From assembly GCA_903961015.1 (NCBI GenBank), contig CAJCCX010000126.1:1-36864 (forward strand): DNA of 36,864 nt, given 5' to 3'. The stretch comes from an uncultured bacterium. Its GTDB lineage: Bacteria; Planctomycetota; Phycisphaerae; Phycisphaerales; SM1A02. Below are positions 18,704 through 22,910 of the stretch, one piece after another. Below the pieces are notes generated by a model. That model was not told the DNA's origin and did no database searches. It saw nothing but the letters and a program-made list of their open reading frames with translations. Both the position numbers and the translations under genes were made by a program. Within the stretch, counting starts at the first letter, position 1; each line of letters begins with the position of its first letter.

Positions 18704-20650
18704 ATGAAAGACCACGCACATATCGCCATTGCGGCACTCGTCGAGAAATTTGGATCTGCGGAGCGAACTCGCATCGAACGCGGAGTGGCGCAAGTCGCCG
18801 CCCGTTGGCAAACGATTGACGGCAATGATGCGGCATTCACAAAATTCTGCCTCGATCGGTTTGTGCCAACAGGTGCGGACTTGGTCCGACTGCTCGCACG
18901 CATCGAAGGTGCACTTGAACAGATCAATGGGCACTTGTACGAAATGCATCGCACGCTGCGCCGACACAGCGACTTAGCTGGCGATGACTTTCCTGGCATC
19001 GATGACATGTTGGCGACGTTCGATCCTGCGCCAGATTTATCAGAACAGTTTTATCGACAGCAATTAGCGTTTGTTGCACTGCTCAATTTCGAGCGCGCCA
19101 ATCTGGATTCAATGCTCAAGTCTGGGTCGAAATGGGATACAGACCAATGGGCATCTGTCAGAGTTGCGCAAGCATTCGGTGCGCGTATTCCAAAGGAGCT
19201 CTCTGAAAAAGCGCGCAAGATTGGCCACGCAGCATCGCAGTGGGTTTCGCACTTTCATATTCCAGTTGGAACATTGGTCGATTCGACGGGTAAGCGTTGG
19301 TTTGCGGAAGATCGCGCGCTGCTTACACACTGGCTGGTGCGCGAGGAAATCAAGGCGCAATACAACAACCCAGAAGGAATCCCCCGCCAACGTGCGCTTG
19401 CTGGAGTAATGGCGCGAGCGATCGATGGCGGCGTTCCAAAGTCGGTAATGGATCGCACAGCAACAGGCGATTGGAATGCGCAGAACAACACAATCGGTGG
19501 GATCGCCATCAAGGCGGACGAGACTATGGGGCTTGCGAGATATGAGCGGTGGATTGAACAGTTCAATCTCGCACGCGAATTTGATGCGCACTATCCAGAT
19601 CACCCAACGGCGATCGCGCGCAAGTTCGAACTCGCACGAGAAATGTCTGAGAAAGATGTCGAACGACTATTGACCGACTTGCTCGATCATCCGACGCGAA
19701 AGGATCTTGCGGCATATTTGCGTAAGCGCCTCGGGCGAGATCTCGAACCATTTGATATCTACTTTGACGACATCGCCGAATCGCGACCCGCATCGGAAAT
19801 GGATGCTGCAGTTGCGGCACGTTTTCCAGACGAAAAGGCTTTCCAAGCAGCGCTTCCGCAAGTGCTGCGCGACCTTGGATATTGCGCGAAGGATGCAGAC
19901 TTCTTAGGAACGCGCATCAAAGTGGAAATTGCTAAGGGATCGGGTCATGCGATGCGACCGCTGCTGACTGAATATGGCGCGTGGCTGCGAACAAGTCGGT
20001 TGAAGGATCAACTCGGGTGGGATGGCTTTGATACTGCGATGCACGAACTTGGCCACAATCTCGAGCAACTCTGTTCGACATACTTTGCGCCGCGACCTGC
20101 CCTGCGCAATGTTCCAAACACCGCGTGCACAGAGGCGTTTGCGTTTCTCTATCAGTCGCTCGGCAAGCGCGTGCTTGGTATCGAAGCGACCGATGGTGCC
20201 GACCGCGCATTTGCAATCGATAGTGTGCAGACGATGCTTGCTGCGTGCCAAATTGCTGGGCCGAGTCTGCTTGAACTTCAAGTCTGGCGCTGGCTGTATG
20301 CAAACCCAACTGCGACGGCAGAACAACTGCGGACAGAAGTGCTTGAGATTGCTGATCGACTTTGGACGCGGTTTTATGAGCGCGATTTCGGCTCGGATCC
20401 TTATCGATTGCTCGCGGCATATCAACACATGATCGGACATCCGCTGTACTTGGCGGATTACACACTTGGTCATGTGATGAGTCACCAGATTCGATCGTTC
20501 ATGCGAACCAAAGATATTGCAACGGAAACTCGCCGTATCACTTCCATCGGACGCTTGACGCCCGAGTTATGGATGCAGCGAGCGGTTGGCAACGGTATCT
20601 CGGCGAAGTCTCTCTGCGAAGACGCAGCGGGGTCGCTCGCTCGCGCCTGA
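18704..20650 (+). CDS. M3-like zinc metallopeptidase
   Basis: A 648-aa, mostly helical protein without signal peptide, so cytoplasmic. The zinc site is HELGH at residues 447-451 with the likely third ligand Glu 477 in TEAFAFLYQ, 25 residues on. That spacing matches the M3 (oligopeptidase F/thimet) layout of clan MA. YxxxxGHVMSHQIRSF near residue 590 resembles the M3 substrate-binding Tyr/His region. It is too diverged to assign to a named oligopeptidase. ATG 18704 is chosen; it lacks both a clear SD and a close TANNNT. Confidence 0.8.
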   Translation: MKDHAHIAIAALVEKFGSAERTRIERGVAQVAARWQTIDGNDAAFTKFCLDRFVPTGADLVRLLARIEGALEQINGHLYEMHRTLRRHSDLAGDDFPGIDDMLATFDPAPDLSEQFYRQQLAFVALLNFERANLDSMLKSGSKWDTDQWASVRVAQAFGARIPKELSEKARKIGHAASQWVSHFHIPVGTLVDSTGKRWFAEDRALLTHWLVREEIKAQYNNPEGIPRQRALAGVMARAIDGGVPKSVMDRTATGDWNAQNNTIGGIAIKADETMGLARYERWIEQFNLAREFDAHYPDHPTAIARKFELAREMSEKDVERLLTDLLDHPTRKDLAAYLRKRLGRDLEPFDIYFDDIAESRPASEMDAAVAARFPDEKAFQAALPQVLRDLGYCAKDADFLGTRIKVEIAKGSGHAMRPLLTEYGAWLRTSRLKDQLGWDGFDTAMHELGHNLEQLCSTYFAPRPALRNVPNTACTEAFAFLYQSLGKRVLGIEATDGADRAFAIDSVQTMLAACQIAGPSLLELQVWRWLYANPTATAEQLRTEVLEIADRLWTRFYERDFGSDPYRLLAAYQHMIGHPLYLADYTLGHVMSHQIRSFMRTKDIATETRRITSIGRLTPELWMQRAVGNGISAKSLCEDAAGSLARA

Positions 20651-20667
20651 TCCGTCGGTTTCCATGC

Positions 20668-20712
20668 GAGATGGGCGACCAGTGTCGAAAAACGACACAG
20701 AGCGCCCATTTC
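20668..20712 (+). repeat. 45-nt two-part hairpin, copy A
   Basis: The outer stem GAGATGGGCG (20668-20677) pairs with CGCCCATTTC (20703-20712). A 4/4 internal loop separates it from the inner stem GTGTCG (20682-20687) with CGACAC (20693-20698), closed by AAAAA. Copy B at 21816 is in the same orientation and identical at 39 of 45 positions. The hairpin's 3' arm overlaps the stop codon of the AbiEi-DUF559 gene. Confidence 0.9.
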
Positions 20713-21751
20713 AACGGGTAGCGCGCCGTCGGCTCAGCGCTGCATGAATGCGCAAGCCCACTGAATCGGACGAAACACGGAGCGCCTTCCAAGTGACATT
20801 CAGCACCATCCAACCTGCGACTTCGAGATCGTTGCGCCGTTCGCGATCACGCTCGAATGCCTCATCGGATGAGTGGAAAGCGCGGCCGTCCACTTCTATG
20901 GCTAGCCTGCAGTCGGGCCAGGCGAAGTCGATGCGGACGATTCGTGTTAACGCAACTTTGGGATGTCTGCGCTGACTATTCGTAGCGGGTTTTGTGAGAC
21001 TTCCTAGAGCGATTCGAACAGTGTGGTTTGGATGCCACCCGAGGCTTCCACCTCTGCGAAGCCCCGCACCAACGAGTACGCGTTTGAACAACCGCTCCGC
21101 TGCCGATTCGGTTCCTTCTAATGCGTGGCGCTGCGCGGCGAGTTGTGCACTTGTCACCCGCCGACCAGTTTGACCAGAGCGACGGGCGGCGATACGCGTC
21201 TCAACGAGCTCGCGCTTCAGCCAGCGCTGCTGCAGGAGAAAGTCGAGCAATCCTTCACGCATGTCGGACTGCACACTGTCAACGCAGTCAAGGAGAGCAG
21301 TCGTTCGATCCGCCAGACGCAGCTGACCCCGCGGCACAACTACACCGTCCATTGCACGCCGAACAATCCGCACTCCTTCGATTCGCATATGACTTCGAGA
21401 TGGAGGGTACGCAGTTGGTATATCAACACCGAAGCGCACGGGCCACTCTCCGATCGCACCAAGGCACTGCGCCGCCGCAGCGCCTGAGACCACAGTCTGC
21501 GGACCAATCCGAAACATGAGTGCATGTGCTACTGCCAAGTGGTAGTGCTCGACGAGCGAAGGGACTATCCACTGGCCGAGAAATTTCGTGATCGCACCCC
21601 TGCGAGCGAACGTGTCAAGGCGGCGAGAGGAATATCCGAGTTCACGAGCTTCGGTCGATGAAAGCACACCGCCATGTGATTGAGCGATGAGGATCAAAGG
21701 CGCAAGACTTGGATGAAGCCGAGGGTTGGAATTGAAGCTAGTAACTCTCAC
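20711..21751 (-). CDS. AbiEi-type winged-helix plus DUF559 (Vsr-like) endonuclease-domain protein
   Basis: A 346-aa protein. Residues about 20-65 (HGGVLSSTEARELGYSSRRL, RRGAITKFLGQWIVP) form the winged helix seen at the N-terminus of AbiEi antitoxins of type IV abortive-infection systems. The C-terminal about 100 residues are DUF559, a PD-(D/E)xK fold: VRIDFAWPD then LAIEVDGRAFH, and WMVLNVTW. The combination is common in actinobacteria, where it is often a solitary multicopy gene. No AbiEii-type toxin is adjacent. GTG 21751 has TAGTTT 6 nt before it. Its codons look more GC-rich than its neighbours' (by eye). Two direct hairpin copies bound it. Confidence 0.82.
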   Translation of the reverse strand: MRVTSFNSNPRLHPSLAPLILIAQSHGGVLSSTEARELGYSSRRLDTFARRGAITKFLGQWIVPSLVEHYHLAVAHALMFRIGPQTVVSGAAAAQCLGAIGEWPVRFGVDIPTAYPPSRSHMRIEGVRIVRRAMDGVVVPRGQLRLADRTTALLDCVDSVQSDMREGLLDFLLQQRWLKRELVETRIAARRSGQTGRRVTSAQLAAQRHALEGTESAAERLFKRVLVGAGLRRGGSLGWHPNHTVRIALGSLTKPATNSQRRHPKVALTRIVRIDFAWPDCRLAIEVDGRAFHSSDEAFERDRERRNDLEVAGWMVLNVTWKALRVSSDSVGLRIHAALSRRRATR

Positions 21752-21757
21752 GAGTCG

Positions 21758-21763
21758 AAACTA
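21758..21763 (-). promoter_or_regulatory. -10-like TAGTTT, predicted leaderless start
   Basis: Minus-strand TAGTTT plus 6 nt precede GTG 21751 of the AbiEi-DUF559 gene. It fixes this GTG as the likely start. Confidence 0.55.
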
Positions 21764-21815
21764 GCGGTCCGCAGGACAAATTTCGGAAACCATTCCAAAC
21801 TTCGGAATCGACCAT

Positions 21816-21860
21816 GAGATGGGCGCACAGTGTCGAAAAACGACACGAGACGCCCATTTC
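21816..21860 (+). repeat. 45-nt two-part hairpin, copy B
   Basis: Same architecture as copy A: outer arms 21816-21825 and 21851-21860, inner arms 21830-21835 and 21841-21846, AAAAA loop. The six differences from copy A are all in the unpaired linkers (CACA/GAGA against ACCA/AGAG). It lies between the start of the AbiEi-DUF559 gene and the end of iscA. Confidence 0.9.
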
Positions 21861-21900
21861 AAGGGTGTGTCGAGCGCGTCGCTAGCAGTTTGCGAAAACT

Positions 21901-22326
21901 TTACGCGCTGAAACTGGAACCGCAACCACACGATGTCGTGGCATTTGGATTGTTGAATACAAATCCGCGTCCCATGATTTCATCCTTGAAGTCGATCGTT
22001 GTTCCGTTGAGATAGAGGTACGACTTTGGATCGCACACAACTCTCACCGTGAATGGTTCGCCAGCAGATTCTGCGACTGCTGTTGCGACAGCAACCGAGC
22101 CTGCGCCTTCGTTTGCTCCTGCCTTCGCAGCGCGACGCCCATAAGAATATGACCAGCACTCGTCAGAATCTTTCTGGACTTCGGTGAGATCAAGGATGTA
22201 AGAAAAACCAGAGCAACCTCCACCCTTCACGCCGACTCTCAAGCAGATTTTTCCTGCGTCGAGTCCTTGCTGTTGGATGATGGTGTCGATTTCGCGAGCG
22301 GCGGTTTCAGTCACATGTAGAGGCAT
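21901..22326 (-). CDS. iscA: IscA/HesB family iron-sulfur carrier with an insertion
   Basis: An A-type carrier that receives and passes Fe-S clusters. The three conserved cysteines are C38 (GGGCSGFSY), C133 and C135 (TTSCGCGSSF), and FNNPNA is present. At 141 aa it is longer than the usual 105-110 because of an Ala/Gly-rich insertion of about 35 residues (roughly 55-90) between strands. ATG 22326 is preceded by AAGGAG with 6 nt spacing. Last gene of iscS-iscU-iscA; a longer open frame upstream is iscU read out of frame. Confidence 0.92.
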   Translation of the reverse strand: MPLHVTETAAREIDTIIQQQGLDAGKICLRVGVKGGGCSGFSYILDLTEVQKDSDECWSYSYGRRAAKAGANEGAGSVAVATAVAESAGEPFTVRVVCDPKSYLYLNGTTIDFKDEIMGRGFVFNNPNATTSCGCGSSFSA

Positions 22327-22337
22327 TTCAAACTCCT

Positions 22338-22778
22338 TTAGGCGTGTTGAGTCACCGGCATTGGTGATTGACTCGCCGGCGACGCGCCGGACTTCTTCTT
22401 CCAATCTTCGATCGCGCTGCGAATGGAATCTTCGGCAAGCACGCTGCAATGAATTTTCACTGGCGGCAAGCTGAGTTCTTCGACGATCTGCGTGTTGCGA
22501 ATCGTCAATGCCTCGTCGACGGTCTTGCCTTTGATCCACTCGGTGGCGAGCGAAGAACTTGCGATTGCGGATCCGCAACCGAAGCATTTGAACTTCGCAT
22601 CTTCGATGATTCCTTGTTCGCTGACTTTGATCTGCAGTTGCATCACATCGCCGCACTCTGGAGCGCCGACGATGCCGATGCCGATATCTTTGCGCGCGGC
22701 GACTTCCTTGGAAGTGCCAAATGCGCCGACGTTTCGTGGATTTTCGTAATGTTCGATGACTTTATTGCTGTATGCCAT
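22338..22778 (-). CDS. iscU: Iron-sulfur cluster scaffold IscU
   Basis: The scaffold on which IscS-derived sulfur and iron form clusters. Ligands are C42 with D44 (APECGDVM), C65 (KFKCFGCGSAIASSS) and C111 (VKIHCSVLAEDSI). The LPPVK motif (104-108) that HscA chaperones recognise is intact, implying an HscA/HscB pair elsewhere. The C-terminus carries about 15 extra Ser/Pro/Gln-rich residues. Start is ATG 22778, about 150 nt after iscS, with a 30-bp triple repeat in between. Confidence 0.95.
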   Translation of the reverse strand: MAYSNKVIEHYENPRNVGAFGTSKEVAARKDIGIGIVGAPECGDVMQLQIKVSEQGIIEDAKFKCFGCGSAIASSSLATEWIKGKTVDEALTIRNTQIVEELSLPPVKIHCSVLAEDSIRSAIEDWKKKSGASPASQSPMPVTQHA

Positions 22779-22820: not shown

Positions 22821-22910
22821 TTCTTTCTAAATCTCTCTTGGGTCGTAACAATCCTTCTAAAACTGACTTGGGTCGTAATGGCCTTTCTAAGTCTCTCTTG
22901 GGTCATAAAA
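22821..22910 (-). repeat. 30-bp triple direct repeat between iscS and iscU
   Basis: Three exact-period 30-bp units (22821-22850, 22851-22880, 22881-22910) share TCTAA and CTTGGGTC-[GA]-TAA on the plus strand, i.e. TTACGACCCAAG...TTAGAAAG in the transcript direction. The repeat lies in the iscS-iscU gap. It reads open in one frame (a TTQERFRK-like peptide), but there is no sign of translation. Confidence 0.85.

What the first reader, a model, noticed from the sequence alone, without database searches (positions are those of the whole stretch)
20668..21860. AbiEi-DUF559 gene bounded by two directly repeated 45-nt hairpins
Copies A (20668-20712) and B (21816-21860) are in the same orientation. 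All stem and loop bases are identical; the six differences lie only in unpaired linkers, so structure is being kept. Copy A overlaps the gene's stop codon. The gene type is typical of actinobacteria and its base use looks richer in GC than its neighbours. The unit (about 1.15 kb) has no transposase, yet looks like a cassette. The hairpins could be recognition sites for the DUF559 nuclease itself (a homing or REP-like system), an RNA partner, or recombination sites. None of these is described to my knowledge.
Basis: partly seen in the sequence, partly recalled or inferred. Interest (0 to 1): 0.78.

Follow-up and report, generated by a model that had tools for sequence, protein, structure and literature searches.

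The report
Nuclease gene flanked by mobile hairpins
A single gene for a homing-type DNA-cutting enzyme sits between two copies of a short DNA hairpin, and the same layout, with a different hairpin each time, recurs in many bacteria, which points to an undescribed kind of selfish DNA.

Summary
The window (genus labelled Planctomycetes in public records) holds a 346-aa gene, AbiEi-like half plus Vsr/I-Bth0305I-type nuclease half, between two direct ~45-nt imperfect palindromes. Three relatives have one hairpin (one of them degenerate) and no gene at the same junction, so gene plus hairpin is an insertion at a resident hairpin. The hairpin is dispersed: 9 places here, found in 7 of 19 genus genomes. 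In two samples of related genes, 27 of 76 and 32 of 58 are flanked by direct repeats (0 of 120 neighbouring ORFs); 47 of these 59 repeats fold well as hairpins. Several such hairpins are scattered as solitary copies, and one large family covaries as a stem. No Y1 (RAYT) transposase was found in the genus. I read it as a REP-like selfish system tied to a homing-type nuclease instead of a tyrosine transposase. Association, dispersal and insertion are shown; cutting of the hairpin is inferred. Against: about half of these genes show no flanking pair, four hairpin-bearing genomes lack the cognate nuclease, gene and hairpin do not co-occur by genome in the genus, and the occupied site keeps intact hairpins, unlike classical homing.

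The parts
20668..20712 (+). Hairpin A: imperfect palindrome, outer stem 10 bp, inner stem 6 bp, loop AAAAA; covers two bases of the nuclease gene's stop codon; covariance-model match 20666-20715
20711..21751 (-). 346-aa nuclease gene: AbiEi-like N-terminal half (model residues 13-211) and DUF559/MTES_1575, Vsr/I-Bth0305I-like catalytic half (216-344)
21816..21860 (+). Hairpin B: direct repeat of A, upstream of the nuclease gene; its linkers match the resident hairpin of relatives; covariance-model match 21814-21863
20678..21825 (.). Inferred inserted segment (1148 bp), if the crossover lies in the 10-bp left arm: hairpin A from its left linker on, the gene, and the left arm of B. The exact crossover point within the hairpin is not certain
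   Evidence: alignment with G012, G010, G016 and G002; inference
18704..20650 (+). Left neighbour, 648-aa gene, no Pfam match at 0.001, convergent with the Fe-S gene; marks the insertion locus
21901..22656 (-). Right neighbour, ORF with an Fe-S biosynthesis domain; marks the other side of the insertion locus

Best explanation
This is a selfish one-gene element. Its unit is one palindromic hairpin plus a gene for a nuclease made of an AbiEi-type DNA-binding half and a Vsr/I-Bth0305I-type homing-endonuclease half. SHOWN by comparison: the unit sits between two direct copies of the hairpin; at this locus it was added at a hairpin that relatives still hold singly; the hairpin family is dispersed; the same architecture with other, unit-specific hairpins recurs in Actinobacteria and Planctomycetes. 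INFERRED: the protein, probably as a dimer, recognises the ~50-nt palindrome (as duplex, cruciform or single-stranded hairpin) and cuts it; repair from a copy that carries hairpin-gene-hairpin installs the gene and leaves two hairpins; recombination between the two can delete the gene and leave a solitary hairpin. How hairpins reach wholly new sites is the least certain step.
For: Single-hairpin counterpart at the same convergent junction in G016 and G002 (intact) and G012 (degenerate), remnant in G010, with the nuclease there only in the window genome. A second hairpin-gene-hairpin unit in G017 stands between two genes that are adjacent in 16 other genomes. Flanking direct repeats in 27 of 76 and 32 of 58 related genes against 0 of 101 and 0 of 19 control ORFs; rescored 61 of 134 against 5 of 661 mismatched flank pairs. 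The genome's own hairpin type is scattered singly in several genomes. A nuclease at least 60% identical to that of the TTGATCATGG units occurs in 6 of the 10 genomes with that hairpin and in 0 of 138 without (p = 1.6e-8). Stem covariation. One unit 93% identical in G008 and G012 with unrelated left flanks. Fold of the nuclease half like I-Bth0305I (Z 13.1) and Vsr (Z 10.6), of the other half like AbiEi (Z 9.2). I-Bth0305I dimerises on a target of nearly 60 bp (PMC3943268, passages); AbiEi binds inverted repeats (PMC7319586, abstract). No Y1 transposase in 19 genus genomes.
Against: No binding or cleavage data. The occupied site keeps two intact hairpins, so if the hairpin is the target the gene would not protect its own locus, unlike classical homing. 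47 of 76 and 26 of 58 genes show no repeat at score 16, and 12 of the 59 repeats called do not fold clearly (z above -2). G207 (52 places), G133, G213 and G197 have the TTGATCATGG hairpin without a close nuclease. Hairpin and domain do not co-occur by genome in the genus. Protein and hairpin divergence are not correlated overall (Mantel, 472 of 2000 permutations as high).
Confidence: 0.55

Rival explanations
1. The hairpins are transcription terminators or insulators. The gene arrived with its terminator and recombined with another terminator of the same family; the nuclease has nothing to do with the hairpin.
For: Window-type hairpins often lie at gene ends, several between convergent genes; the downstream copy overlaps the stop codon in 36 of 59 units.
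Against: 0 of 120 neighbouring ORFs have such flanking pairs. In the same genome, units with unlike proteins mostly have unrelated hairpins. Hairpin and a close nuclease go together across genomes in one family. The stems are not followed by a clear T-run (read; not scored).
Confidence: 0.15
2. The hairpins are a mobile repeat moved by another, unrecognised enzyme, or spread by host recombination and repair; the nuclease gene is a passenger that is favoured at such sites.
For: Solitary hairpins outnumber units. Some genomes with the hairpin lack the nuclease. In G000 and G012 the window-type hairpin lies inside larger modular repeats.
Against: No Y1 transposase in the genus (other transposase families were not searched for). 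The gene inside is repeatedly of one family, with different hairpins in different hosts.
Confidence: 0.17
3. The palindromes are operators: the AbiEi-like half represses its own promoter by binding the inverted repeat, and the second copy is a by-product of gene insertion.
For: AbiEi antitoxins autoregulate by binding inverted repeats in their promoter (PMC7319586, abstract). The upstream copy starts a median 108 nt before the ORF.
Against: The downstream copy abuts or overlaps the stop codon, and solitary copies lie far from the gene. Covariation deep in the stem is not needed for two operator half-sites.
Confidence: 0.08

Closest known systems
REP sequences with RAYT/TnpA-REP (REPtrons, REPINs)
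   Same: Short dispersed palindromes, one-gene driver flanked by the same palindromes, solitary copies, enzyme types paired with palindrome types (PMC3733652 passages; PMC8266576 abstract; PMC3116915 passages)
   Different: The enzyme has a Vsr/EDxHD-like nuclease fold, not a HUH tyrosine transposase; no Y1_Tnp match in 19 genus genomes
Homing endonuclease genes of the EDxHD/Vsr kind (I-Bth0305I)
   Same: Catalytic-domain fold (Z 13.1); occupied and unoccupied alleles at one site; a target length of tens of bp (PMC3943268 passages)
   Different: AbiEi half instead of the tethered DNA-binding regions described there; the putative target is a dispersed intergenic palindrome, and both flanking copies stay intact after insertion
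AbiE type IV toxin-antitoxin system
   Same: N-terminal half has the AbiEi profile and fold; AbiEi binds inverted repeats
   Different: Fused to a nuclease; no AbiEii toxin gene beside it in the window
MTES_1575-type Vsr domains of large conflict proteins
   Same: Same Pfam domain; described as a novel Vsr-REase (PMC3710099 passages)
   Different: Those are multi-domain proteins (frames over 900 aa also seen); here a stand-alone gene, median 314 aa in the 59 units, with flanking hairpins

Membership tests
REP/RAYT (REPtron) | Driver gene is a HUH/Y1 tyrosine transposase | tested here: not met
   PF01797 in 0 of 19 genus genomes, control rings in 5 of 14; the gene between the hairpins has a Vsr-like nuclease fold
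REP/RAYT (REPtron) | Short palindromes dispersed in many copies | tested here: met
   9 places in the window genome; 5 to 13 listed places in six other genomes; 6 to 52 in ten genomes
REP/RAYT (REPtron) | Copies are extragenic | tested here: inconclusive
   Simple ORF calls around 46 window-type sites put many between genes, but spurious ORFs in repeat arrays cloud the count
REP/RAYT (REPtron) | GTAG (or CGTC) tag at one end of the palindrome | not tested
   No systematic scan was made
Homing endonuclease gene | Nuclease domain of a known homing family | tested here: met
   I-Bth0305I catalytic domain, Z 13.1, rmsd 2.2, 96 residues; eight invariant residues incl. E219, D275, E286, D288, H293, D302 in 50 sequences
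Homing endonuclease gene | Occupied and unoccupied alleles at one orthologous site | tested here: met
   Unit in G000; single hairpin in G016, G002 and (degenerate) G012
Homing endonuclease gene | Insertion splits the target, so the occupied allele is immune | tested here: not met
   Both flanking hairpins are complete; applies if the hairpin itself is the target
Homing endonuclease gene | Enzyme cuts the unoccupied allele | not testable with these tools
   Needs biochemistry
AbiE toxin-antitoxin | AbiEi antitoxin fold | tested here: met
   6y8q_D Z 9.2, rmsd 6.7 over 170 residues; PADLOC AbiEi E 7.1e-8; Pfam AbiEi_4 below cut-off
AbiE toxin-antitoxin | AbiEii (DUF1814) toxin gene beside it | tested here: not met
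   At the window locus only: neighbours have an Fe-S domain and no Pfam match; the rest of the genome was not searched for it

The most novel reading that the evidence does not exclude
AbiEi-Vsr (DUF559/MTES_1575) genes drive a separate, transposase-free class of REP-like elements, widespread in Actinobacteria and Planctomycetes. Each nuclease homes to its own palindrome, installs itself between two direct copies, often with its stop codon inside the downstream hairpin, and spreads or maintains the palindrome as solitary copies: a second origin for bacterial palindromic repeats.
Probability: 0.5. Interest if true: 0.9.

Novelty: categorically new. Interest (0 to 1): 0.85.

Why it matters
The domain is common: 75 of 148 sampled genomes of one actinobacterial class match it at E <= 1e-6, in stand-alone genes or large proteins, yet Pfam still calls DUF559 a protein of unknown function. 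If the stand-alone genes are selfish and tied to palindromes, that explains scattered one-gene islands and gives palindromic repeats outside the RAYT world a candidate driver; [quoted passage not shown] It also offers many enzyme-hairpin pairs whose specificity can be tested directly.

Tried and rejected
REP/RAYT membership: rejected, no Y1 transposase in 19 genomes. Rfam: no family reaches its gathering score in the window. Phage or plasmid carriage: 4 phage and 66 plasmid records match the window protein, none over 80% of it; the rows listed cover 14-23%, all near the nuclease domain. Genome-level co-occurrence in the genus: none. Overall protein-hairpin co-divergence over 48 units: Mantel rho 0.033, 472 of 2000 permutations as high. 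By identity bin, hairpin score >= 18 in 11 of 11 pairs at >= 70%, 5 of 26 at 50-70%, 2 of 27 at 40-50%, 0 of 1064 below 40%; 10 of those 11 close pairs are of the one TTGATCATGG group. Covariation on the first 8 window-type copies is not above shuffles. Empty sites of solitary hairpins: 15 sites queried, 3 aligned: one shows presence and absence, with adjoining bases also changed; in one the hairpin is present in all four genomes; in one G012 has the hairpin where three relatives have other, variable DNA. L203/G071 passed as a unit, but its repeat is a local array on one contig.

Rows dropped before counts: 6 of 102 loci without a matching ORF and 4 of 80 clusters with too little flank; 2 of 60 loci with short flank; a place matched on both strands counted once; the partial hit at C221 and the weak hit at G012:C4 left out of the 46 sites fetched (the latter proved to be the degenerate hairpin at the window junction). 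One search scores at most 25 candidates a genome and its listing is cut. One search's listing is cut; the 60 genes fetched are those with frames of about 270-530 aa, taken by eye in order from the top. Sample 1 includes the window's and G017's own units. Control ORFs lie in the same loci. Of 13 loci named only 8 were read, as the others were not yet in the script's file.

Full report
OBSERVATION. The two 45-nt copies are at the stated places, in the same orientation, 1148 nt apart. The six differences (positions 11, 12, 32-35) lie in the linkers only. Both fold far better than shuffles (z -7.2 and -8.9). The gene between them runs 20711-21751 on the minus strand; its TGA lies in the arm of copy A.

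THE GENE. Pfam gives MTES_1575 and DUF559 for the C-terminal part. AbiEi profiles cover residues 18-195 (PADLOC, E 7.1e-8; Pfam AbiEi_4 below cut-off). An AlphaFold2 model from an alignment of 50 sequences (pLDDT 90.6, pTM 0.82) puts residues 216-344 on the catalytic domain of the homing endonuclease I-Bth0305I (3r3p_A, Z 13.1, rmsd 2.2, 96 residues), NGO0050 (3hrl, Z 12.7) and Vsr (1cw0, Z 10.6), and residues 13-211 on AbiEi of Streptococcus agalactiae (6y8q_D, Z 9.2, rmsd 6.7) (Foldseek E 3.7e-4 for 6y8q_A). S216, E219, D275, E286, D288, G289, H293 and D302 are invariant in the 50 sequences.

THE LOCUS. The neighbours are a 648-aa gene and a gene with an Fe-S biosynthesis domain, convergent. 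The end of the 648-aa gene is found in 18 of 19 genomes of the genus. The nuclease is at this junction only in the window genome. G016 and G002 have one intact hairpin there, G012 a degenerate one, G010 the right remnant of one; 11 others have a gap of 10-73 nt with no such hairpin seen; G008 and G017 are rearranged there. In the alignment the flank left of A is ancestral, and so is what lies right of B's left arm, including B's linkers (GCACA as in G012, GAGA as in G010); A's right flank and B's left flank are not. A's left linker (ACCA) is one base from that of G002 (TCCA), so the exact crossover point in the hairpin is uncertain, but the segment gained is one gene plus one hairpin, 1148 bp.

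THE HAIRPIN FAMILY. A covariance model from 8 copies finds 9 places in the window genome and matches in 7 of 61 genomes, all 7 among the 19 of this genus, 0 of 42 outside it (stricter filters, which can lose weak matches). Several sites are shared by species at orthologous places. One solitary copy is present in G012 and G010 and absent at the same gene end in G000 and G002. The public label of the genus comes from two matches by contig number and length: G017:C15 (27384 bases) with CANETX010000015.1, 'Planctomycetaceae bacterium isolate CH-Jul18-113', and G012:C58 (13431 bases) with CAMAXY010000058.1, 'Singulisphaera sp. GP187 isolate ME-21oct19-76'.

A SECOND INSERTION. In G017 a 333-aa relative, 43% identical, lies between two direct copies of a different hairpin, and this unit stands between two genes that are adjacent, without it, in the 16 other genomes where both could be seen.

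GENERALITY. I scored ungapped direct repeats between the 5' and 3' flanks of related genes. Sample 1: 102 loci (22, 80), 96 genes, 80 clusters at 85% identity, 76 testable: 27 of 76 reach score 16, against 0 of 101 other ORFs in the same loci. Sample 2, from 148 genomes of one class around a Cellulomonas genome: of 60 genes 58 were testable, 32 of 58 reach 16, against 0 of 19 control ORFs. With one routine for both samples the figures are 29 of 76 and 32 of 58; upstream flank of one gene against downstream flank of another gives 0 of 376 and 5 of 285, the five probably because related units in sample 2 share a hairpin. Of the 59 repeats, 47 fold with z of -2 or lower against 100 shuffles; 12 do not (L161, L183, L197; L339, L353, L357, L362, L363, L367, L378, L384, L386; L384 shows only part of a known hairpin). 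The repeat is a median 51 nt long and 88% identical, the upstream copy starts a median 108 nt before the ORF, and the downstream copy overlaps the stop codon in 36 of 59. Named isolates include Rhodococcus sp. 1168 (L231), Mycolicibacter acidiphilus M1 (L178) and Cellulomonas sp. URHD0024 (L176).

DISPERSAL AND SPECIFICITY. Eighteen hairpins were searched together in 19 genomes (25 candidates scored at most, listing cut). Places listed for the genome's own hairpin, each including the two beside the gene: G062 10, G063 8, G064 8, G069 8, G004 13, G068 5. G001 and G066 have only the pair; G067 lists the pair. Hits to another genome's type are few: one in G065, and one listed in G072, whose own hairpin was not in the query. 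G073, whose hairpin was not in the query either, has none. In sample 2 one hairpin, TTGATCATGG..CCATGATCAA, occurs in 10 of 148 genomes at 6 to 52 places each; the reversed control pattern is at 0. A nuclease at least 60% identical to that of its unit is in 6 of 148 genomes, all 6 among those 10 (p = 1.6e-8). G207 (52 places), G133 (21), G213 (7) and G197 (6; a 47% relative only) lack it. Around 8 such genes read, 5 have two full hairpins, 2 one full and a partial one, 1 only the upstream copy. Forty-seven of these hairpins, from five genomes, covary: pairs 15-20 are formed in 77-100% of sites against 45-82% with the 3' letters shuffled, most with several Watson-Crick types; relatedness of sites inflates this. 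In the same genome, units with unlike proteins mostly have unrelated hairpins.

MOBILITY. A 1.28-kb unit is 93% identical in G008 and G012, while the ~1.3-kb left flanks share nothing detected (only 83 nt of right flank exist in G008). In G000 two single hairpins carry that unit's ~45-nt left extension, one of them with a right flank like that of the G008 unit (76% over 162 columns), as expected of sites before gain or after loss of the gene.

MECHANISM. Shown: association, insertion at a resident hairpin, dispersal, fold. Inferred: a dimer binds the ~50-nt palindrome with the AbiEi half and cuts with the Vsr-like half; repair from a flanked copy installs the gene. I-Bth0305I dimerises on a target of nearly 60 bp (PMC3943268, passages), and AbiEi proteins bind inverted repeats (PMC7319586, abstract). 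Covariation inside the stem favours recognition of an extruded hairpin over plain half-sites. The solitary copies aligned show no evident target duplication and changed neighbouring DNA, which would fit break repair. A difficulty: the occupied site keeps two intact hairpins, so homing in the strict sense would leave it open to cutting; a REP-like or excision role would not suffer from this.

AGAINST. 47 of 76 and 26 of 58 genes show no pair. Hairpin and domain do not co-occur by genome in the genus. Overall co-divergence is not significant. There are no cleavage data.

LITERATURE. 'DUF559' is in 14 held papers, none of which by title or start of abstract concerns flanking repeats. Searches for Vsr + homing endonuclease + palindromic + REP + mobile (5 papers), REP + endonuclease + RAYT + non-autonomous + Actinobacteria (0), DUF559/AbiEi/hairpin/flanked/repeats (1), palindromic repeats + nuclease gene (0), Vsr-like/homing endonuclease/fractured genes (31, 10 listed) and MTES_1575 (4) listed no paper whose title or start of abstract describes this layout. 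The library holds only open-licence papers, and these were read as listings, so prior description is not excluded.

Noticed in passing
window 22823-22908: Three 26-nt direct copies at 30-nt spacing (CTTTCTAAATCTCTCTTGGGTCGTAA) between the Fe-S gene and the class-V aminotransferase gene.
   Followed up: no
L061 left flank (query 1441-1503): A 63-nt stretch hits dozens of places in G000, G012 and G010, and some in G002, G008 and G016: a separate, abundant dispersed repeat of the genus.
   Followed up: no
L053, L054, L055, L059-L065, L073: In G000, G012 and G002 the window-type hairpin often lies inside a longer modular repeat (about -100 to +260 around it) with internal repeats.
   Followed up: partly
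L282 and L264: A t6-type unit (G008) and a single t6 hairpin (G000) lie directly after what looks like a tRNA 3' end, read by eye.
   Followed up: no
G071:C111:3926-6078 (L203): The own repeat of this genome is a local array of at least 7 copies beside the nuclease gene instead of a dispersed family.
   Followed up: no
G148:C393:4679-5080 and G148:C327:1913-2197: Fragments of the cognate nuclease gene lie near TTGATCATGG hairpins, as if units decay in place.
   Followed up: no
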